Source of the DNA: Paraconexibacter algicola
GTDB lineage: Bacteria; Actinomycetota; Thermoleophilia; Solirubrobacterales; Solirubrobacteraceae
Direction: 5' to 3'
Length of the DNA stretch: 64,000 nucleotides
NCBI RefSeq assembly: GCF_003044185.1
Contig: NZ_PYYB01000001.1
Span: forward strand, 2,748,978 to 2,812,977
Below, piece by piece: positions 55,379 through 61,083 of the stretch (position 1 is its first letter; the number at the start of each line of letters is the position of its first letter). The notes under the pieces were generated by a model, which searched no databases, was not told the DNA's origin, and saw nothing but the letters and a program-made list of their open reading frames with translations. The translations under genes and the position numbers were made by a program.

Positions 55379-56575
55379 ATGACCGTCGAAGACGCCATCC
55401 TCGCCCTGGTGGCGGCCTTCGTGGTCGCGGCCCTGGCGACCCCGCTGACGTCCCGGCTGGCCCGGGCCGTCGGGGCGGTCGACCGGCCGCGCGACCGCGG
55501 ACTGGCCGCCGGCGGCACGCCGCTGCTCGGCGGCCTGGCGATGCTCGCGGCGGTCCTCGTCGCGGGCCTGCTGTTCCTCGACTTCGGCGGCATCCTCGGC
55601 GACCGCCTGCACGGCATCCTCGCCGGGGCGGTCGTGATCGCGCTCGTCGGCGCGCTGGACGACCGCTTCGACCTGCACCCGGCGGTCAAGCTGCTCGGCC
55701 AGATCGGGGCGGCGAGCGTGCCGGTCGCCGCCGGCGTCGAGGTCACGAACATCACGTTCCCGTTCCTCGGCGCGGTCGACTTCGGCAGCGCGGGCGCGCC
55801 CCTGACCGTGGTCGGGCTGGTGGCGGTGATGAACGTCGTGAACCTCTCCGACGGCATCGACGGCCTCGCGGCCGGGGTCTGCGCGATCGCCGCGGCGGCG
55901 TTCGCGATCATCGCGTTCGACCTGCAGCGCGACCACGCGGGCGTGCTCGCGGCGATCACCTGCGGGGCGGCGCTCGGCTTCCTCGTGCACAACTTCCACC
56001 CGGCGAGCGCCTTCATGGGCGACTGCGGGTCGAACCTGCTCGGGCTGCTGCTGGGCTGCGTCGCGGTGGAGGGCGCGGTCAAGACGCAGGCGATCCTCGC
56101 CCTGCTGTTCCCGCTCGTCGTCCTGGCGGTGCCGTTCCTGGACACGACCTTCGTCGTCCTGAAGCGGCTGAAGTACCGCCGGCCGATCTACGCGGCGGAC
56201 ACCAACCACTTCCACCACCGCTTCAGCGCGATCGGCTTCAGCCAGCGGCGGACGGTCCTGTACCTCTACGCGTGGACGGTCTGCCTGGCGGGGTTCGCGG
56301 TGGCGCTGCGGTTCGTCCCCTACTCCGACAACGGCGGCAGCTTCGACCCCGGCTGGACGGCGGTGATGGCCGGGCTCGGGCTGCTCGTGCTCGCCGCCAG
56401 CGTGTACCTCGTCTACACGCTCGAGATCCTGAAGTTCCGGGTGACGCTGCGGCGGCGCACGGGCCGGGCGGCCGCGGACGTCGACGCCGAGGTGGCGCGG
56501 GCGATGGAGACCGGCGAGTTCCAGGCGCTGCGGGCGGACGACGGTCCTAGCGGACCCCGTACACCGTCCGCATGA
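55379..56575 (+). CDS. Undecaprenyl-phosphate GlcNAc-1-phosphate transferase (WecA/TagO/MraY-like)
   Basis: 398 residues with about ten helices. Catalytic motifs: GTPLLGGLAML, ALDDRFDLHPAVKLLGQ with the Asp pair, NVVNLSDGIDGLAAG, and HNFHPASAFMGDCGSNLLG. The late motif TNHFHHRFSAIG matches the WecA/TagO group rather than MraY. It loads a sugar-1-phosphate, probably GlcNAc-P, on undecaprenyl phosphate to start a wall polymer or arabinogalactan-like linkage unit. The 3' end overlaps the convergent TetR gene by 29 bp. TAGGCT ends 11 nt before the ATG. Confidence 0.92.
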   Translation: MTVEDAILALVAAFVVAALATPLTSRLARAVGAVDRPRDRGLAAGGTPLLGGLAMLAAVLVAGLLFLDFGGILGDRLHGILAGAVVIALVGALDDRFDLHPAVKLLGQIGAASVPVAAGVEVTNITFPFLGAVDFGSAGAPLTVVGLVAVMNVVNLSDGIDGLAAGVCAIAAAAFAIIAFDLQRDHAGVLAAITCGAALGFLVHNFHPASAFMGDCGSNLLGLLLGCVAVEGAVKTQAILALLFPLVVLAVPFLDTTFVVLKRLKYRRPIYAADTNHFHHRFSAIGFSQRRTVLYLYAWTVCLAGFAVALRFVPYSDNGGSFDPGWTAVMAGLGLLVLAASVYLVYTLEILKFRVTLRRRTGRAAADVDAEVARAMETGEFQALRADDGPSGPRTPSA

Positions 56576-57152
56576 AGATCCCGCAGAGCGCGTCGACGAG
56601 CTCCTCGGGCGCGTACGGCTCGCCCTGGGCGAGCTGCTCGTAGAAGGCGCGCTCGACCATCCACACGAGCGCGAACGCGGTCGGGTGCGGGGCGCCGAGG
56701 ACCGTTCCCTCCGGGCGCTCGGCGGCGATCCGCTCGGCGGCCGCGTCGACGAAGCGGCCGAGCAGCGTGCGCCAGAACGCGGCGACCTCCGGGCCGCCGG
56801 CGGCCGCCTCGACGACCGCGCGCACGAGCGGCGCGTGGTCGCGGTAGACCCCCTGGATCGCGGTGAGCGCGGCGTGCATCTCCTGGTGGGGGTCCTCGCC
56901 GCCGGAGAACCAGATGTCCGCCTGCCGGTAGAGCTCGTCGCTGAGGTCCTCGGTCAGGCGCGCGAGCAGCTCGCGCTTGTCCTTGAAGTAGAAGTAGAAC
57001 GCGGTCCGCGAGATGCCGGCGCGGGTGGCGATGCGCTCGATCCCCAGGTCGGGGAACGAGGCGCCCTCGGCCAGCAGGTCCTCGGTGGCCTGCAGCACGG
57101 CCGCCTGGATCGCGGCGCGCTTGGGGGACGGGTCGTCGGCGGTCCGGGCCAT
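56547..57152 (-). CDS. TetR-family transcriptional regulator
   Basis: 201 residues. The helix-turn-helix reads GIERIATRAGISRTAFYFYFKDKRELLARL. The C-terminal ligand domain (residues 60-200) has no specific signature. On its strand a TAGGCT hexamer (57167-57162) ends 9 nt before the ATG. The TTGAC-N5-GTCAA repeat at 57187-57201 is in its upstream region and could be its own site; it also resembles, with one base less spacing, the ETF operator at 46027. Its target is therefore only suggested. Confidence 0.9.
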   Translation of the reverse strand: MARTADDPSPKRAAIQAAVLQATEDLLAEGASFPDLGIERIATRAGISRTAFYFYFKDKRELLARLTEDLSDELYRQADIWFSGGEDPHQEMHAALTAIQGVYRDHAPLVRAVVEAAAGGPEVAAFWRTLLGRFVDAAAERIAAERPEGTVLGAPHPTAFALVWMVERAFYEQLAQGEPYAPEELVDALCGIFMRTVYGVR

Positions 57153-57186: not shown

Positions 57187-57201
57187 TTGACGGGGTGTCA
57201 A
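57187..57201. promoter_or_regulatory. TTGAC/GTCAA inverted repeat near the TetR gene
   Basis: Arms TTGAC and GTCAA are separated by GGGGT in the 100-bp divergent gap between the TetR gene and the first GH-A-like gene. It is a candidate autoregulatory site of the TetR protein. The left arm TTGACG can also serve as -35 for a plus-strand promoter. Confidence 0.4.
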
Positions 57202-57252: not shown

Positions 57253-58173
57253 ATGCGCCTCCGAAGCCTGTCCGTCGCGGCCCTCGCCGCGCTGTCCCTC
57301 AGCGCGCTCGCGGCGCTGCCCAGCCCGGCGTCGGCCAAGCCGCTGATCGGCATCGCCGACCAGAAGCCGGACATGTTCGCCGACCCGCGCTTCGTCGCGC
57401 TGCAGCTGAAGACCGCGCGCTACTTCGTGCCCTTCGACGTGAGCACGAACCCGTTCCAGCTCGCGCGCCTCGACGCCTGGATGGCGGGCGCCGCCCGGGA
57501 CGGCATCGCGCCGCTGATCACGATGGAGCGCTCGAGCAACGCGCGCACCCGCAAGAAGGGCGCCCCGAGCGTCGCCGCCTACCGCAAGGCGGTGCGCTAC
57601 CTGCGCCAGCGCTACCCGTTCGTGACGGCGTACTCGGCGTGGAACGAGCCCAACGACGGCGGCCAGCCGACGTTCCGCAAGCCGCAGCTGCTGGCCTCCT
57701 ACACGAAGGTGCTGCAGCAGGAGTGCAAGGGCTGCAAGATCCTCGCGGGCGACCTGCTCGACAACCCGAACATGGTCAGCTACGCGCGGCAGGTCGAGAA
57801 GGCGCTGAAGAAGCCCGCGAAGATCTGGGGCCTGCACAGCTACTCCGACGCGAACAACTTCCGCACGACCTCGACGAAGAAGCTGCTGAAGGGCGTCAAG
57901 GGCAAGGTCTGGCTGACCGAGGTCGGCGGCGTCGTCGCGCGGCGCTCCGCGTTCTCGAAGGCGACGTTCAAGGGCAAGGGCGAGGCGCACGCCGCGAAGG
58001 CGACGTCCTACCTGTTCAAGACGATCGCGAAGCTCAGCCCGCGGATCGAGCGGATGTACCTCTACCACTGGAACTCGGCCTCCCCGAACGACTCGTGGGA
58101 CTCCGCGTTCATCGGCCCGGACGGCCGCGAGCGCCCGGCGCTGGCCCTGCTGCGCAAGCAGCTCGGGCGCTGA
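57253..58173 (+). CDS. Secreted glycoside-hydrolase-like protein (clan GH-A type), copy 1
   Basis: 306 residues. Signal peptide MRLRSLSVAALAALSLSALA. The mature part starts PLIGIADQKPDMFADPRFVAL. Clan GH-A signatures are AWNEPNDGG with acid/base Glu132 and VWLTEVGGVV with nucleophile Glu223, 91 residues apart; YLYHWNSASPNDSWDSAFIG follows. This supports a TIM-barrel retaining glycosidase acting outside the cell. The CAZy family is not identified. It has a paralogue 430 bp downstream with identical Glu spacing. Confidence 0.82.
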   Translation: MRLRSLSVAALAALSLSALAALPSPASAKPLIGIADQKPDMFADPRFVALQLKTARYFVPFDVSTNPFQLARLDAWMAGAARDGIAPLITMERSSNARTRKKGAPSVAAYRKAVRYLRQRYPFVTAYSAWNEPNDGGQPTFRKPQLLASYTKVLQQECKGCKILAGDLLDNPNMVSYARQVEKALKKPAKIWGLHSYSDANNFRTTSTKKLLKGVKGKVWLTEVGGVVARRSAFSKATFKGKGEAHAAKATSYLFKTIAKLSPRIERMYLYHWNSASPNDSWDSAFIGPDGRERPALALLRKQLGR

Positions 58174-58175
58174 CC

Positions 58176-58562
58176 GTGCACGTCGCGAACCTCGCGGACC
58201 GCGAGACCTTCACGACCCTCGACGGGTCCACGATCCGCGAGCTGTGCGGGCCGTCGTGGACGCCCGCGCGCAACCAGAGCCTCGCCGAGGCCACCGTGCC
58301 GGTCGGCGGCGAGACGATCGCGCACTACCACCGCACCTCCGAGGAGCTCTACTACTTCACCGCCGGCCGTGGCCGGCTGCGGGTGGGGGAGGAGACGCGC
58401 GAGGTCGGCCCGGGGGACTGCGCGGTGATCCCGCCCGGGATCGAGCACCAGCTCTGGTGCGACGGCGAGGAGCCGCTCGTGCTGCTGTGCTGCTGCGCTC
58501 CCGCCTACTCGCACGAGGACACGGTCCTCACCGGCGCAACCCCTCCGTCCGCCGCGCGTTAG
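58176..58562 (+). CDS. Cupin domain protein
   Basis: 128 residues, single cupin. Motif 1 is HYHRTSEELYYFTAGRGRL and motif 2 VGPGDCAVIPPGIEHQLWCDG. It probably binds a metal and is cytoplasmic; no signal peptide is seen. Substrate unknown. It follows the first GH-A-like gene by 2 bp and precedes the second by 43 bp, so it is in the same transcript. Phosphomannose-isomerase-type cupins share these motifs, but the length is too short for that enzyme. GTG start. Confidence 0.87.
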   Translation: MHVANLADRETFTTLDGSTIRELCGPSWTPARNQSLAEATVPVGGETIAHYHRTSEELYYFTAGRGRLRVGEETREVGPGDCAVIPPGIEHQLWCDGEEPLVLLCCCAPAYSHEDTVLTGATPPSAAR

Positions 58563-58605
58563 AAGCTGCAGGACCCCGGGCAGGACCGCCGGGACCCGCA
58601 GCCGC

Positions 58606-59577
58606 ATGCCCACGTTCCCCCGTGCACTCCGCTCCGTCGTCGCGCTCTGCGCGCTCGGCCTCGCCCTCGCCGCCGCCGCGGCGACGCCCGCGCACGCCCT
58701 GCGCCCGAGCCTGACCGTCGGCATCGGCGACCAGAAGCCGGGGATGTTCACCGACCCGCTGTTCGGGGAGCTGGGCGTCCGCGACGCGCGCATCGTCGTC
58801 CCGTGGGACGTCCGCACGATCGACTGGCAGGCCCAGGACGTCGACGCCTGGATGCGCGCGGCGCGCCGCGCGCGCTCGCGCGTGCTCGTGACGTTCTCGA
58901 ACTCGCGAGGGGAGGGGCGTCGGCGCGTCCTGCCCACGCCCGAGCGGTTCAAGTACGAGTTCCAGCGGTTCCGCGAGCGCTACCCGTGGGCGACGACGTT
59001 CGCGGTCTGGAACGAGCCCAACCACTGCGGGCAGCCGACCTGCACCCGGCCGGCGCTCGTCGCCGCCTACTACCGCAAGCTGCGCCAGGCCTGCCCGCGC
59101 TGCACGATCCTGCCGGCCGAGCTGCTGGACATGCCGAACATGATCCGCTGGACCCGGCAGCTGCGCCGCGCGCTGAGGGTCGAGCCGAAGATCTGGGGCC
59201 TGCACAACTACGTCGACGCCAACCGGATGTCGACGGCGCGCACCCGCTCGCTGCTGCGCGCCGTCAAGGGCGACGTGTGGCTGACCGAGACCGGCGGACT
59301 GGTCGCCCGGCGCAACCGCCGCAAGGAGACCGTGGGGTTCACCGAGGGGACGCAGCACGCCGCGCGGGTCACGCGGTTCGTGCTCGACCGGCTGGCCGGG
59401 ACGAGCCGGCGGATCTCGCGCGTCTACCTCTACCACTGGGACACGATCAGCCCGCAGGACAGCTGGGACAGCGCGCTGATCGGGCCGCGCGGGCCACGCC
59501 CGGCGTTCACCGTCCTGGACGGGCTGCTGCGCCGTCAGCGGGTGCTGATCGCCCGCCAGCGCGCCGCCCGTCGCTGA
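58606..59577 (+). CDS. Secreted glycoside-hydrolase-like protein (clan GH-A type), copy 2
   Basis: 323 residues, paralogue of the protein at 57253. Signal peptide MPTFPRALRSVVALCALGLALA. The N-terminus LTVGIGDQKPGMFTDPLFGEL parallels copy 1. WNEPNHCGQP carries Glu137 and DVWLTETGGLV carries Glu228, again 91 residues apart, followed by YLYHWDTISPQDSWDSALIG. Four cysteines around residues 140-170 suggest two disulfides absent from copy 1. Presumed exported TIM-barrel glycosidase of unknown family and substrate. Confidence 0.82.
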   Translation: MPTFPRALRSVVALCALGLALAAAAATPAHALRPSLTVGIGDQKPGMFTDPLFGELGVRDARIVVPWDVRTIDWQAQDVDAWMRAARRARSRVLVTFSNSRGEGRRRVLPTPERFKYEFQRFRERYPWATTFAVWNEPNHCGQPTCTRPALVAAYYRKLRQACPRCTILPAELLDMPNMIRWTRQLRRALRVEPKIWGLHNYVDANRMSTARTRSLLRAVKGDVWLTETGGLVARRNRRKETVGFTEGTQHAARVTRFVLDRLAGTSRRISRVYLYHWDTISPQDSWDSALIGPRGPRPAFTVLDGLLRRQRVLIARQRAARR

Positions 59578-59716: not shown

Positions 59717-59767
59717 TTCGCACGTCCAGGGAGCAGCGCCGCACCTCCCATGCCCCATCAGGAACTC

Positions 59768-60196
59768 ATGATCGATGCCCCGTCCGACCCGTCGGCCCCC
59801 GAGCCGACCCCGGGCGGTCCCCGCCTGGGGACGAGCCCGCTGCGGCTCGCCGACATCGTCCTGATCGTCATGGCGGCGCCGGTCGTCTGCCTCCTCGGGG
59901 CGCCCGTCCTGGGCATCCTCGCCGGGGCCGGCGTGTGGGTCCTCAACCGCGTCCTCGAGCTCGCGCTCGCCCGGCGCGCGGCCACCCGCGAGGACGTCCG
60001 CGCCGCAATCGGATACAACCTCGGCGGCGTCATCGGACGCGCGTGGCTCGTGGGCCTTACGATCCTCGCCGTCGGAACCGCCGGAGAGCGGGAGGACGGG
60101 CTCGCCGCCGCCGTCCTCGTCTTCGCCGCCTTCACGCTCTACTTCGCCAACTCGCTGCTCGCACGCTCGTTCGAGAGGAACGCTTCCCCGTCATGA
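59768..60196 (+). CDS. AtpI-like small membrane protein, first gene of the atp operon
   Basis: 142 residues. A polar N-terminus (MIDAPSDPSAPEPTPGGP) is followed by about four hydrophobic segments in hairpins, as in AtpI/ATP synthase protein I. It may assist assembly of the c-ring or act in Mg(2+) uptake as proposed for AtpI; sequence similarity is low, so the call relies mainly on position. CAGGA a few nucleotides before the ATG supports the start at 59768 over one at 59750. Its stop overlaps atpB by 4 bp. Confidence 0.72.
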   Translation: MIDAPSDPSAPEPTPGGPRLGTSPLRLADIVLIVMAAPVVCLLGAPVLGILAGAGVWVLNRVLELALARRAATREDVRAAIGYNLGGVIGRAWLVGLTILAVGTAGEREDGLAAAVLVFAAFTLYFANSLLARSFERNASPS

Positions 60197-61083
60197 CGAC
60201 CAAAGCCAAAGTCGGCATCGGCCTCGGCATCTACGTCGGTGTCATCGTCCTGTTCGTCGCGATCTTCGGCTTCTCGCGGACCGACAACGACTTCTTCCAG
60301 CCGCAGGAGGAGTTCAAGCTCGACACCTGGTTCGAGCTCGGGCCCCTGGCCTTCAACAAGGCCACGATGTACGTCCTCGTCGCCGCGATCTTCATGTGCG
60401 CGACGATGATCTACGTCGCCCGCCGCATGAAGCAGAAGCCCAACCGCGTCCAGACGCTGGTCGAGCTCGCGTACACCACGATGCGCGACAACATCACCAA
60501 GCAGAACATGGACCACAGCGTCGCCGCCAAGTGGTTCCCGTTCATCGCCGCGCTGTTCCTGTTCATCTGGTTCTCGAACATGCTCGGCTACATCCCGCTG
60601 CCGACGAACACGGCCCACAAGGTCGACATCTTCGGCTTCGACGTCCCCTCCTTCGCCCTCTACGCGGCGACCGCGAACCTCTCGATCCCGCTCGCGCTCT
60701 CGCTGCTCGTGTGGATCATCTACAACGCGGTCGGCATCCGGACCAAGGGCTTCGGCGGCTACATGCGGAGCTTCATCCCGGCCGGCGTGCCGAAGGCGAT
60801 CGTCCCGATGGTCTTCGTCCTCGAGCTGATGTCGAACTTCATGCGGCTGATCTCGCTGAGCGTCCGCCTCTTCGCGAACATCCTCGCGGGCCACCTCATC
60901 ATCCTGTTCATGGGCGGCGCGCTCGTCGTGCTCCTCGGCATCGAGGCGCTCGGCATCGTCACCTTCCCGATGGCCGTCGGCCTCTTCATGTTCGAGGTCG
61001 GCCTCGTCGCCACCCTGCAGGCCTTCATCTTCGCCACCCTCACCGCCATCTACCTCGGCGGGGCGACCTCAGACCACCACTAA
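60193..61083 (+). CDS. atpB: ATP synthase F0 subunit a
   Basis: 296 residues with about six helices. The essential Arg is in LISLSVRLFANILAGHL, and the C-terminal helix VGLVATLQAFIFATLTAIYLGGA is diagnostic. It forms the proton half-channels with the c-ring. Start ATG overlaps the preceding stop in ATGA. Confidence 0.95.
   Translation: MTTKAKVGIGLGIYVGVIVLFVAIFGFSRTDNDFFQPQEEFKLDTWFELGPLAFNKATMYVLVAAIFMCATMIYVARRMKQKPNRVQTLVELAYTTMRDNITKQNMDHSVAAKWFPFIAALFLFIWFSNMLGYIPLPTNTAHKVDIFGFDVPSFALYAATANLSIPLALSLLVWIIYNAVGIRTKGFGGYMRSFIPAGVPKAIVPMVFVLELMSNFMRLISLSVRLFANILAGHLIILFMGGALVVLLGIEALGIVTFPMAVGLFMFEVGLVATLQAFIFATLTAIYLGGATSDHH

What the first reader, a model, noticed from the sequence alone, without database searches (positions are those of the whole stretch)
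57253..59577. Paralogous pair of exported clan GH-A-like proteins around a cupin
Both copies start the mature chain with GI(A/G)DQKP(D/G)MF and share WNEPN and WLTE(V/T)GG Glu residues exactly 91 residues apart, then YLYHW and NDSWDSA/QDSWDSA. The combination is consistent with retaining glycosidases, but I cannot place the family. Copy 2 has four extra cysteines. The genes flank a cupin, and a TetR gene is divergent.
Basis: partly seen in the sequence, partly recalled or inferred. Interest (0 to 1): 0.55.

Follow-up and report, generated by a model that had tools for sequence, protein, structure and literature searches.

The report
Exported sugar-cutting enzyme pair, new family
Two neighbouring genes of a soil-type actinobacterium encode secreted enzymes that almost certainly cut sugar chains; they belong to a family that standard catalogues do not yet name, found in one bacterial order, and are probably switched by the repressor gene beside them.

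Summary
Copies 1 (57253-58173) and 2 (58606-59577) are 46% identical exported paralogues around a cupin, with a divergent TetR gene. One detail is wrong: mature copy 2 has two extra cysteines, not four. Both AlphaFold2 models are (beta/alpha)8 barrels (pLDDT 95.0, 94.2), with the Glu pair just after strand 4 and at the end of strand 7, the clan GH-A layout. Both Glu are invariant in 93 of 93 family members. Pfam and NCBIfam name neither copy. The nearest solved relative is the endo-beta-glucosidase PslG (filed under GH39; 17-19% identity). Canonical GH39 profiles match no better than a GH10 control, and GH39's beta-sandwich domain is missing. Full-length members were seen only within the order Solirubrobacterales, up to 7 per genome. 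Copy 2 belongs to a clade that lies between a WecA-type gene and the atp operon. A palindrome, TTGACN5GTCAA, sits once in the own genome, between the TetR gene and copy 1, and recurs at the same place in relatives. Best reading: a TetR-controlled operon exporting retaining endo-beta-glycosidases, probably acting on cell-surface or environmental beta-glycan. Substrate unproven. A new family-level branch of a known clan; moderate interest.

The parts
57253..58173 (+). Copy 1: exported GH-A-like glycosidase, 306 aa (P0001)
   Evidence: AF2 (beta/alpha)8, pLDDT 95.0
57253..57336 (+). Copy 1 signal peptide (28 aa, cleavage after ASA; read by eye, no predictor run)
   Evidence: sequence
57646..57648 (+). 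Copy 1 E132, putative acid/base, just after strand 4 (WNEPN)
   Evidence: invariant 93 of 93; strand 126-128 in the model
57919..57921 (+). Copy 1 E223, putative nucleophile, end of strand 7 (WLTEVGG)
   Evidence: invariant 93 of 93; strand 218-224 in the model
58176..58562 (+). Cupin, 128 aa, GTG start 2 bases after the stop of copy 1
   Evidence: Pfam Cupin_2 E 2.8e-18
58606..59577 (+). Copy 2: exported GH-A-like glycosidase, 323 aa (P0002)
   Evidence: AF2 (beta/alpha)8, pLDDT 94.2
59014..59016 (+). Copy 2 E137, putative acid/base
   Evidence: aligned with E132; strand 131-133 in the model
59287..59289 (+). Copy 2 E228, putative nucleophile
   Evidence: aligned with E223; strand 223-229 in the model
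59026..59043 (+). Copy 2 C141-C146, probable extra disulphide beside the catalytic Glu
   Evidence: both present in 34, both absent in 59, never one alone, of 93
56547..57152 (-). Divergent TetR-family regulator (TetR_N + EthR_C)
57187..57201 (.). Candidate operator TTGACggggtGTCAA between TetR and copy 1
   Evidence: only site in the 4.74 Mb own genome; same palindrome exact in 6 of 23 distinct TetR upstream regions (window included), shuffles 0
55379..56575 (+). WecA/MraY-type sugar-phosphate transferase upstream of the module (context)
   Evidence: Pfam Glycos_transf_4 E 6.8e-35; TIGR02380 wecA E 1.1e-33, below its curated cut-off
60193..61083 (+). AtpB, start of the atp operon downstream (context)
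   Evidence: Pfam ATP-synt_A E 7.1e-54

Best explanation
A TetR-controlled operon (copy 1 - cupin - copy 2) that exports two clan GH-A retaining beta-glycosidases. E132/E137 act as acid/base and E223/E228 as nucleophile in a double-displacement cut. They form a sequence family of Solirubrobacterales, nearest to PslG among solved proteins, and probably are endo-acting on a beta-glycan outside the cell: most likely the cell's own or a neighbour's surface polysaccharide rather than a plant polymer. The TetR protein probably binds the 15-bp palindrome between its gene and copy 1 and lets go when it binds a small ligand. Shown by computation: fold, position and invariance of the Glu pair, family limits, conserved place, palindrome. 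Directly from sequence: export signals. Inferred: activity, retaining mechanism, endo mode, substrate, regulation. My odds: glycosidase of clan GH-A type 0.88; separate family-level branch 0.7; TetR acts at the palindrome 0.7; own/neighbour surface glycan as substrate 0.35.
For: Barrels with Glu after strand 4 and at the end of strand 7. E132, E223, R56, W220, D283, R294 and G33 identical in 93 of 93; H195 and Y197 in 91 of 93. PslG is the best solved match by profile (E 1.8e-7 and 1.1e-7), by Foldseek for copy 1 (E 2.4e-12) and by VIA-align for both (Z 23.3 against 22.1 for the next protein; 24.4 against 21.6). Copy 2 lies in a 30-row clade of which 29 are in the wec/atp block. Immediate neighbours of copies outside the block show no sugar-utilisation locus: 87 genes, no Pfam family in more than 4. 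Palindrome: exact in 6 and at least 9 of 10 positions in 8 of 23 distinct regions, against shuffle means of 0 and 0.04; once in the own genome, control 0.
Against: No activity data. The profile match to PslG covers mainly strands 2-4 (profile positions 46-137 of 329), so the nucleophile is not aligned by sequence. Foldseek's top 50 for copy 2 do not list PslG. The Wec-TetR-cupin-AtpB block also occurs without these enzymes (L159; L163 without a TetR hit), and 17 of 26 cupin loci show no copy within the 1.5 kb fetched (some contigs end sooner), so the enzymes are not obligate partners of those genes. 13 of 23 TetR regions score under 8 of 10 for the palindrome, and in 12 relatives the exact pattern also occurs away from this place (21 sites in all).
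Confidence: 0.72

Rival explanations
1. They are divergent GH39 enzymes of the PslG kind: a subfamily of a known family rather than a new one.
For: PslG tops profile and structure comparisons; PslG is classified GH39 (PMC11912335, passages seen); hhalign to six remote GH39-like proteins gives probability 98.4, E 7e-15.
Against: Canonical GH39 (six proteins at PF01229 E 1e-59 or better) scores probability 8.0, equal to the GH10 control at 8.0; phmmer of copy 1 to PslG only E 0.042; no accessory beta-sandwich domain, which reported GH39 structures have (PMC6933502, passages).
Confidence: 0.3
2. They are GH128 (Glyco_hydro_cc) beta-1,3-glucanases.
For: 5 of 10 relatives scanned singly pass PF11790's curated cut-off, best E 8e-8 (9 of 20 at E 1 or better); GH128 also has an H-x-Y before the nucleophile: E168, H245, Y247, E272 in CBM6E (PMC10956234, passages), against E132, H195, Y197, E223 here.
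Against: Neither window copy matches PF11790 (own genome no match); the matches are partial; the one strong actinobacterial GH128 found does not match the family profile (probability 4.6, one sequence only); Glu spacing 104 there, 86-102 here.
Confidence: 0.12
3. They digest plant or fungal polysaccharide for food (arabinan, galactan, xylan and others).
For: Exported and multi-copy (up to 7 per genome); the own genome also carries a GH10 xylanase homologue (E 8.6e-98).
Against: No extra carbohydrate-binding domain in the models; no other glycosidase or sugar transporter recognised among the 7 Pfam-scanned neighbours of two of the three other own copies and one of the third (not all neighbours were scanned), and no such enrichment among 87 neighbours elsewhere.
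Confidence: 0.25
4. They are catalytically dead glycan-binding barrels.
For: No activity is known.
Against: The Glu pair is kept in 93 of 93 and its surroundings nearly so.
Confidence: 0.06

Closest known systems
PslG of Pseudomonas aeruginosa (GH39; PDB 5bx9, 4zn2, 9g17)
   Same: (beta/alpha)8 barrel, WNEPN motif, acid/base Glu165 and nucleophile Glu276; best match. Endo-beta-glucosidase by PMC11912335 (abstract and passages).
   Different: 17-19% identity over 272-284 aligned residues; PslG has a C-terminal beta-sandwich (PMC6933502, passages); Glu spacing 111 against 91; PslG lies in an exopolysaccharide synthesis cluster, these do not.
GH128 / Pfam PF11790 Glyco_hydro_cc
   Same: Barrel enzyme; H-x-Y before the nucleophile; some relatives pass the Pfam cut-off.
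   Different: The window copies do not; Glu spacing 104 in CBM6E against 91.
Canonical GH39 beta-xylosidases / iduronidases (PF01229)
   Same: WNEPN motif and clan fold.
   Different: No profile match above the GH10 control.
EthR-type TetR regulators (PF21313)
   Same: TetR_N and EthR_C domains; divergent gene; palindrome in the shared upstream region.
   Different: Ligand and targets unknown; the palindrome here was defined here.

Membership tests
Clan GH-A | (beta/alpha)8 barrel | tested here: met
   AF2 models, pLDDT 95.0 and 94.2
Clan GH-A | Acid/base Glu after strand 4 (N-E motif) and nucleophile Glu at the end of strand 7 | tested here: met
   E132 follows strand 126-128, E223 in strand 218-224; copy 2 likewise; both Glu 93 of 93. 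Catalytic role itself not tested
Clan GH-A | Retaining hydrolysis | not testable with these tools
   needs an enzyme assay
GH39 | Match to PF01229 / canonical GH39 profile | tested here: not met
   no PF01229 hit for either copy or in the own genome at E 1e-10; hhalign probability 8.0, same as GH10 control
GH39 | Accessory beta-sandwich domain as in reported structures | tested here: not met
   mature chains end with the barrel; feature from passages of PMC6933502
GH39 | Significant similarity to a characterised member (PslG) | tested here: inconclusive
   family profile E 1.1e-7 over part of the barrel; single copy 1 E 0.042
GH128 | PF11790 above its curated cut-off | tested here: not met
   neither window copy; 5 of 10 relatives do
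GH128 | Structural closeness to GH128 | tested here: inconclusive
   AmGH128 at rank 47 for copy 2; not among the 50 shown for copy 1
Other CAZy GH-A families (GH5, GH79, GH51 and later ones) | CAZy/dbCAN profile match | not testable with these tools
   no CAZy library on hand; Pfam gave no such hit for the two copies
EthR-like TetR regulators | TetR_N and EthR_C domains above cut-off | tested here: met
   36.1 against 24 bits, 65.8 against 27 bits

The most novel reading that the evidence does not exclude
A new clan GH-A family, founded within Solirubrobacterales, whose block copies are a regulated envelope module: the cell exports endo-glycosidases from the WecA-atp junction, under a one-operon TetR switch, to trim or release its own surface glycan, the actinobacterial counterpart of PslG.
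Probability: 0.25. Interest if true: 0.62.

Novelty: new variant of a known kind. Interest (0 to 1): 0.42.

Why it matters
The family is multi-copy in an actinobacterial order, and the general catalogues searched give it no name, so genome surveys will undercount these organisms' glycan-active enzymes. The fixed place beside a WecA-type gene and a defined candidate operator make the question of its glycan and its trigger directly testable with a few purified proteins and one DNA fragment.

Tried and rejected
Single-sequence searches gave nothing useful: Pfam and NCBIfam, PDB sequences (PslG at E 0.042 and 0.44). Plasmids and phages by protein: no match for copy 2. NCBIfam on 93 members: three single weak hits, taken as chance. 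Pfam Lipase_GDSL_2 hits of 5 of 20 members are under that family's cut-off where scanned singly and were rejected. Promoter scan of the module: none found, which says little for this phylum.

A first hhalign run used wrong reading frames for several controls and a global mode; it is superseded. The GH128 control there rests on one sequence. Tree row own_L003 is missing because my filter demanded TETG-like letters and that copy reads EETG; 95 rows remain (2 window, 91 relatives, 2 own). From, 3 of 94 hits were dropped (two overlapping frames of one broken copy in L062, one partial in L110). The genome scan kept the best 80 of 127, so invariance counts lean to closer relatives. GH128 not being among Foldseek's first 50 for copy 1, and PslG not among those for copy 2, exclude nothing.

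A broader regulon reading of the palindrome was considered: in 12 relatives the exact pattern has 21 sites; of the 16 loci held (own site included), 5 have a homologue of this TetR nearby. So uniqueness holds for the own genome only.

Papers: PMC11912335, PMC10956234 and PMC6933502 were read as passages only. PMC4653695 is not held. Searches for an earlier description showed, in their listings, no paper on this family; only open-licence PMC papers are covered. The place of rfe beside the atp operon in mycobacteria is recalled; one search did not settle it.

Full report
What is there. The two genes are at the stated coordinates: copy 1, 306 aa, 57253-58173; copy 2, 323 aa, 58606-59577; 46% identical, E 9e-88. 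Each begins with a signal-peptide-like stretch ending ASA or AHA, read by eye. The cupin starts 2 bases after the stop of copy 1 and ends 43 bases before copy 2, so the three genes look like one operon. The TetR-type gene (TetR_N, EthR_C) is divergent. The cysteine count in the finding is wrong: copy 2 has two extra mature cysteines (C141, C146), not four. Across 93 members these two are both present in 34 and both absent in 59, never one alone, which points to a disulphide; C158/C161 of copy 1 are both present in 92 of 93.

Fold and active site. AlphaFold2 with the 93-member alignment gives copy 1 a (beta/alpha)8 barrel at pLDDT 95.0, pTM 0.90; copy 2 the same with a 62-member alignment, pLDDT 94.2, pTM 0.88. 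E132 lies just after strand 4 (126-128), E223 within strand 7 (218-224); copy 2 is equivalent. Both Glu, with R56, W220, D283, R294 and G33, are identical in 93 of 93; H195 and Y197 in 91. This is the arrangement of clan GH-A retaining glycosidases (general knowledge). The chemistry was not tested.

Which family. Pfam and NCBIfam name neither copy; nor does NCBIfam name the other members of the 93-member alignment beyond three single weak hits. Among solved proteins PslG is nearest: profile E 1.8e-7 (20 sequences) and 1.1e-7 (93 sequences); Foldseek rank 1 for copy 1, E 2.4e-12, 18% identity; VIA-align Z 23.3, rmsd 3.0, 272 aligned for copy 1, next protein 22.1; Z 24.4, rmsd 3.2, 281 aligned for copy 2, next 21.6. 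For copy 2 Foldseek's first 50 rows lack PslG. In hhalign, six canonical GH39 proteins score probability 8.0, equal to 16 GH10 controls (8.0), while six remote GH39-like proteins score 98.4 and three remote proteins of the same class 97.6. The models end with the barrel, whereas reported GH39 structures carry a beta-sandwich (PMC6933502, passages). Some relatives pass the GH128 Pfam cut-off (5 of 10 scanned), the window copies do not. I therefore place the family beside PslG in clan GH-A, as a branch of about family rank, and do not file it as GH39 or GH128. CAZy itself was not available.

Distribution. The own genome has five copies and a sixth partial, distant match. Of 61 genomes of the order, 41 have the family: counted from the listing, 32 of 37 in the own family, 5 of 10, 4 of 5 and 0 of 9 in three others; up to 7 copies each. 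Of 296 genomes across the phylum, full-length strong matches occur in four, all of the own family; five others of the same order or class have only partial matches at E 4e-6 to 6e-8. The genome scan found 127 relatives and kept 80; their titles name Solirubrobacterales, Thermoleophilia families or unspecified actinobacteria, with one record set called Bifidobacterium breve that looks mislabelled. No plasmid or phage match for copy 2.

Neighbourhood. In 28 of 80 loci at least one gene of the window's surroundings is near a copy: the WecA-type gene in 20, TetR in 18, cupin in 15, AtpB in 15 (counted; many contigs end early). The order Wec - TetR (divergent) - cupin/enzymes - AtpB repeats. Enzyme-cupin-enzyme order as in the window recurs in L041, L050, L062, L155 and L157. 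In the tree, copy 2 lies in a clade of 30 rows of which 29 are in the block (support 97); copy 1 lies in another, weakly supported group with upstream copies of L041, L050 and L055. So both look like old paralogues kept in place. Against a tight link, the block also exists without the enzymes (L159; L163, where no TetR was found). Copies outside the block have unrelated neighbours: no Pfam family in more than 4 of 87 adjacent genes, and the neighbours scanned beside the three other own copies show no sugar-utilisation locus.

Regulation. The 100-base gap between the TetR gene and copy 1 holds TTGACggggtGTCAA at 57187-57201. The exact pattern occurs once in the 4.74 Mb own genome, with none for the reversed control. 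In 23 distinct upstream regions of homologous TetR genes (39 before merging overlaps), 6 have the exact pattern, 8 match at 9 or more of 10 positions, 10 at 8 or more; shuffles give means of 0, 0.04 and 0.69. Two regions carry CTGAC..GTCAG, changed symmetrically on both arms. L012 and L062 carry two sites 22 bases apart. 13 of 23 score lower, and in 12 other genomes the pattern also occurs elsewhere, 21 sites in all. The pattern was first seen in the window and then tested on relatives, so the window's own site, one of the 6, is not independent evidence.

How it most likely works. The TetR protein sits on the palindrome and keeps the operon low; a ligand, unknown, releases it. Copies 1 and 2 are exported; the acid/base Glu protonates the leaving sugar, the nucleophile Glu forms a covalent intermediate, water completes the cut. 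By analogy with PslG the target is an internal beta-linkage of a surface polysaccharide. Only the anatomy is shown; every functional step is inferred. The cupin shows no export signal and so is taken as cytoplasmic; its role is open.

Noticed in passing
L040, L043, L086, L096: Contigs titled 'Bifidobacterium breve isolate TrH-03may19-71' carry members of this family, and L040 the Solirubrobacteraceae-type wec-TetR-cupin-enzyme block; the record is probably mislabelled.
   Followed up: partly
L012, L062: Two copies of the palindrome 22 bases apart upstream of the TetR gene, as if two regulator dimers bind side by side.
   Followed up: no
L088:5905-9060; L090:2294-5285: Arrays of three tandem copies of the enzyme family.
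   Followed up: no
L069:1958-3721: Two copies tail to tail whose coding ends overlap by about 33 bases.
   Followed up: no
L062:3562-4475: One copy is split over two frames, a broken gene or a sequencing error.
   Followed up: no
G000:C1:384526-385110 (L150): A sixth, distant and partial match of the family profile in the own genome, E 2.1e-9.
   Followed up: no
window 59758-60196: Small ORF in the usual AtpI position before atpB with no Pfam or NCBIfam match; called AtpI here by position only.
   Followed up: partly
L222, L228: The palindrome also lies near TetR genes 38-40% identical to this one elsewhere in related genomes, hinting at a wider family of such regulators.
   Followed up: partly
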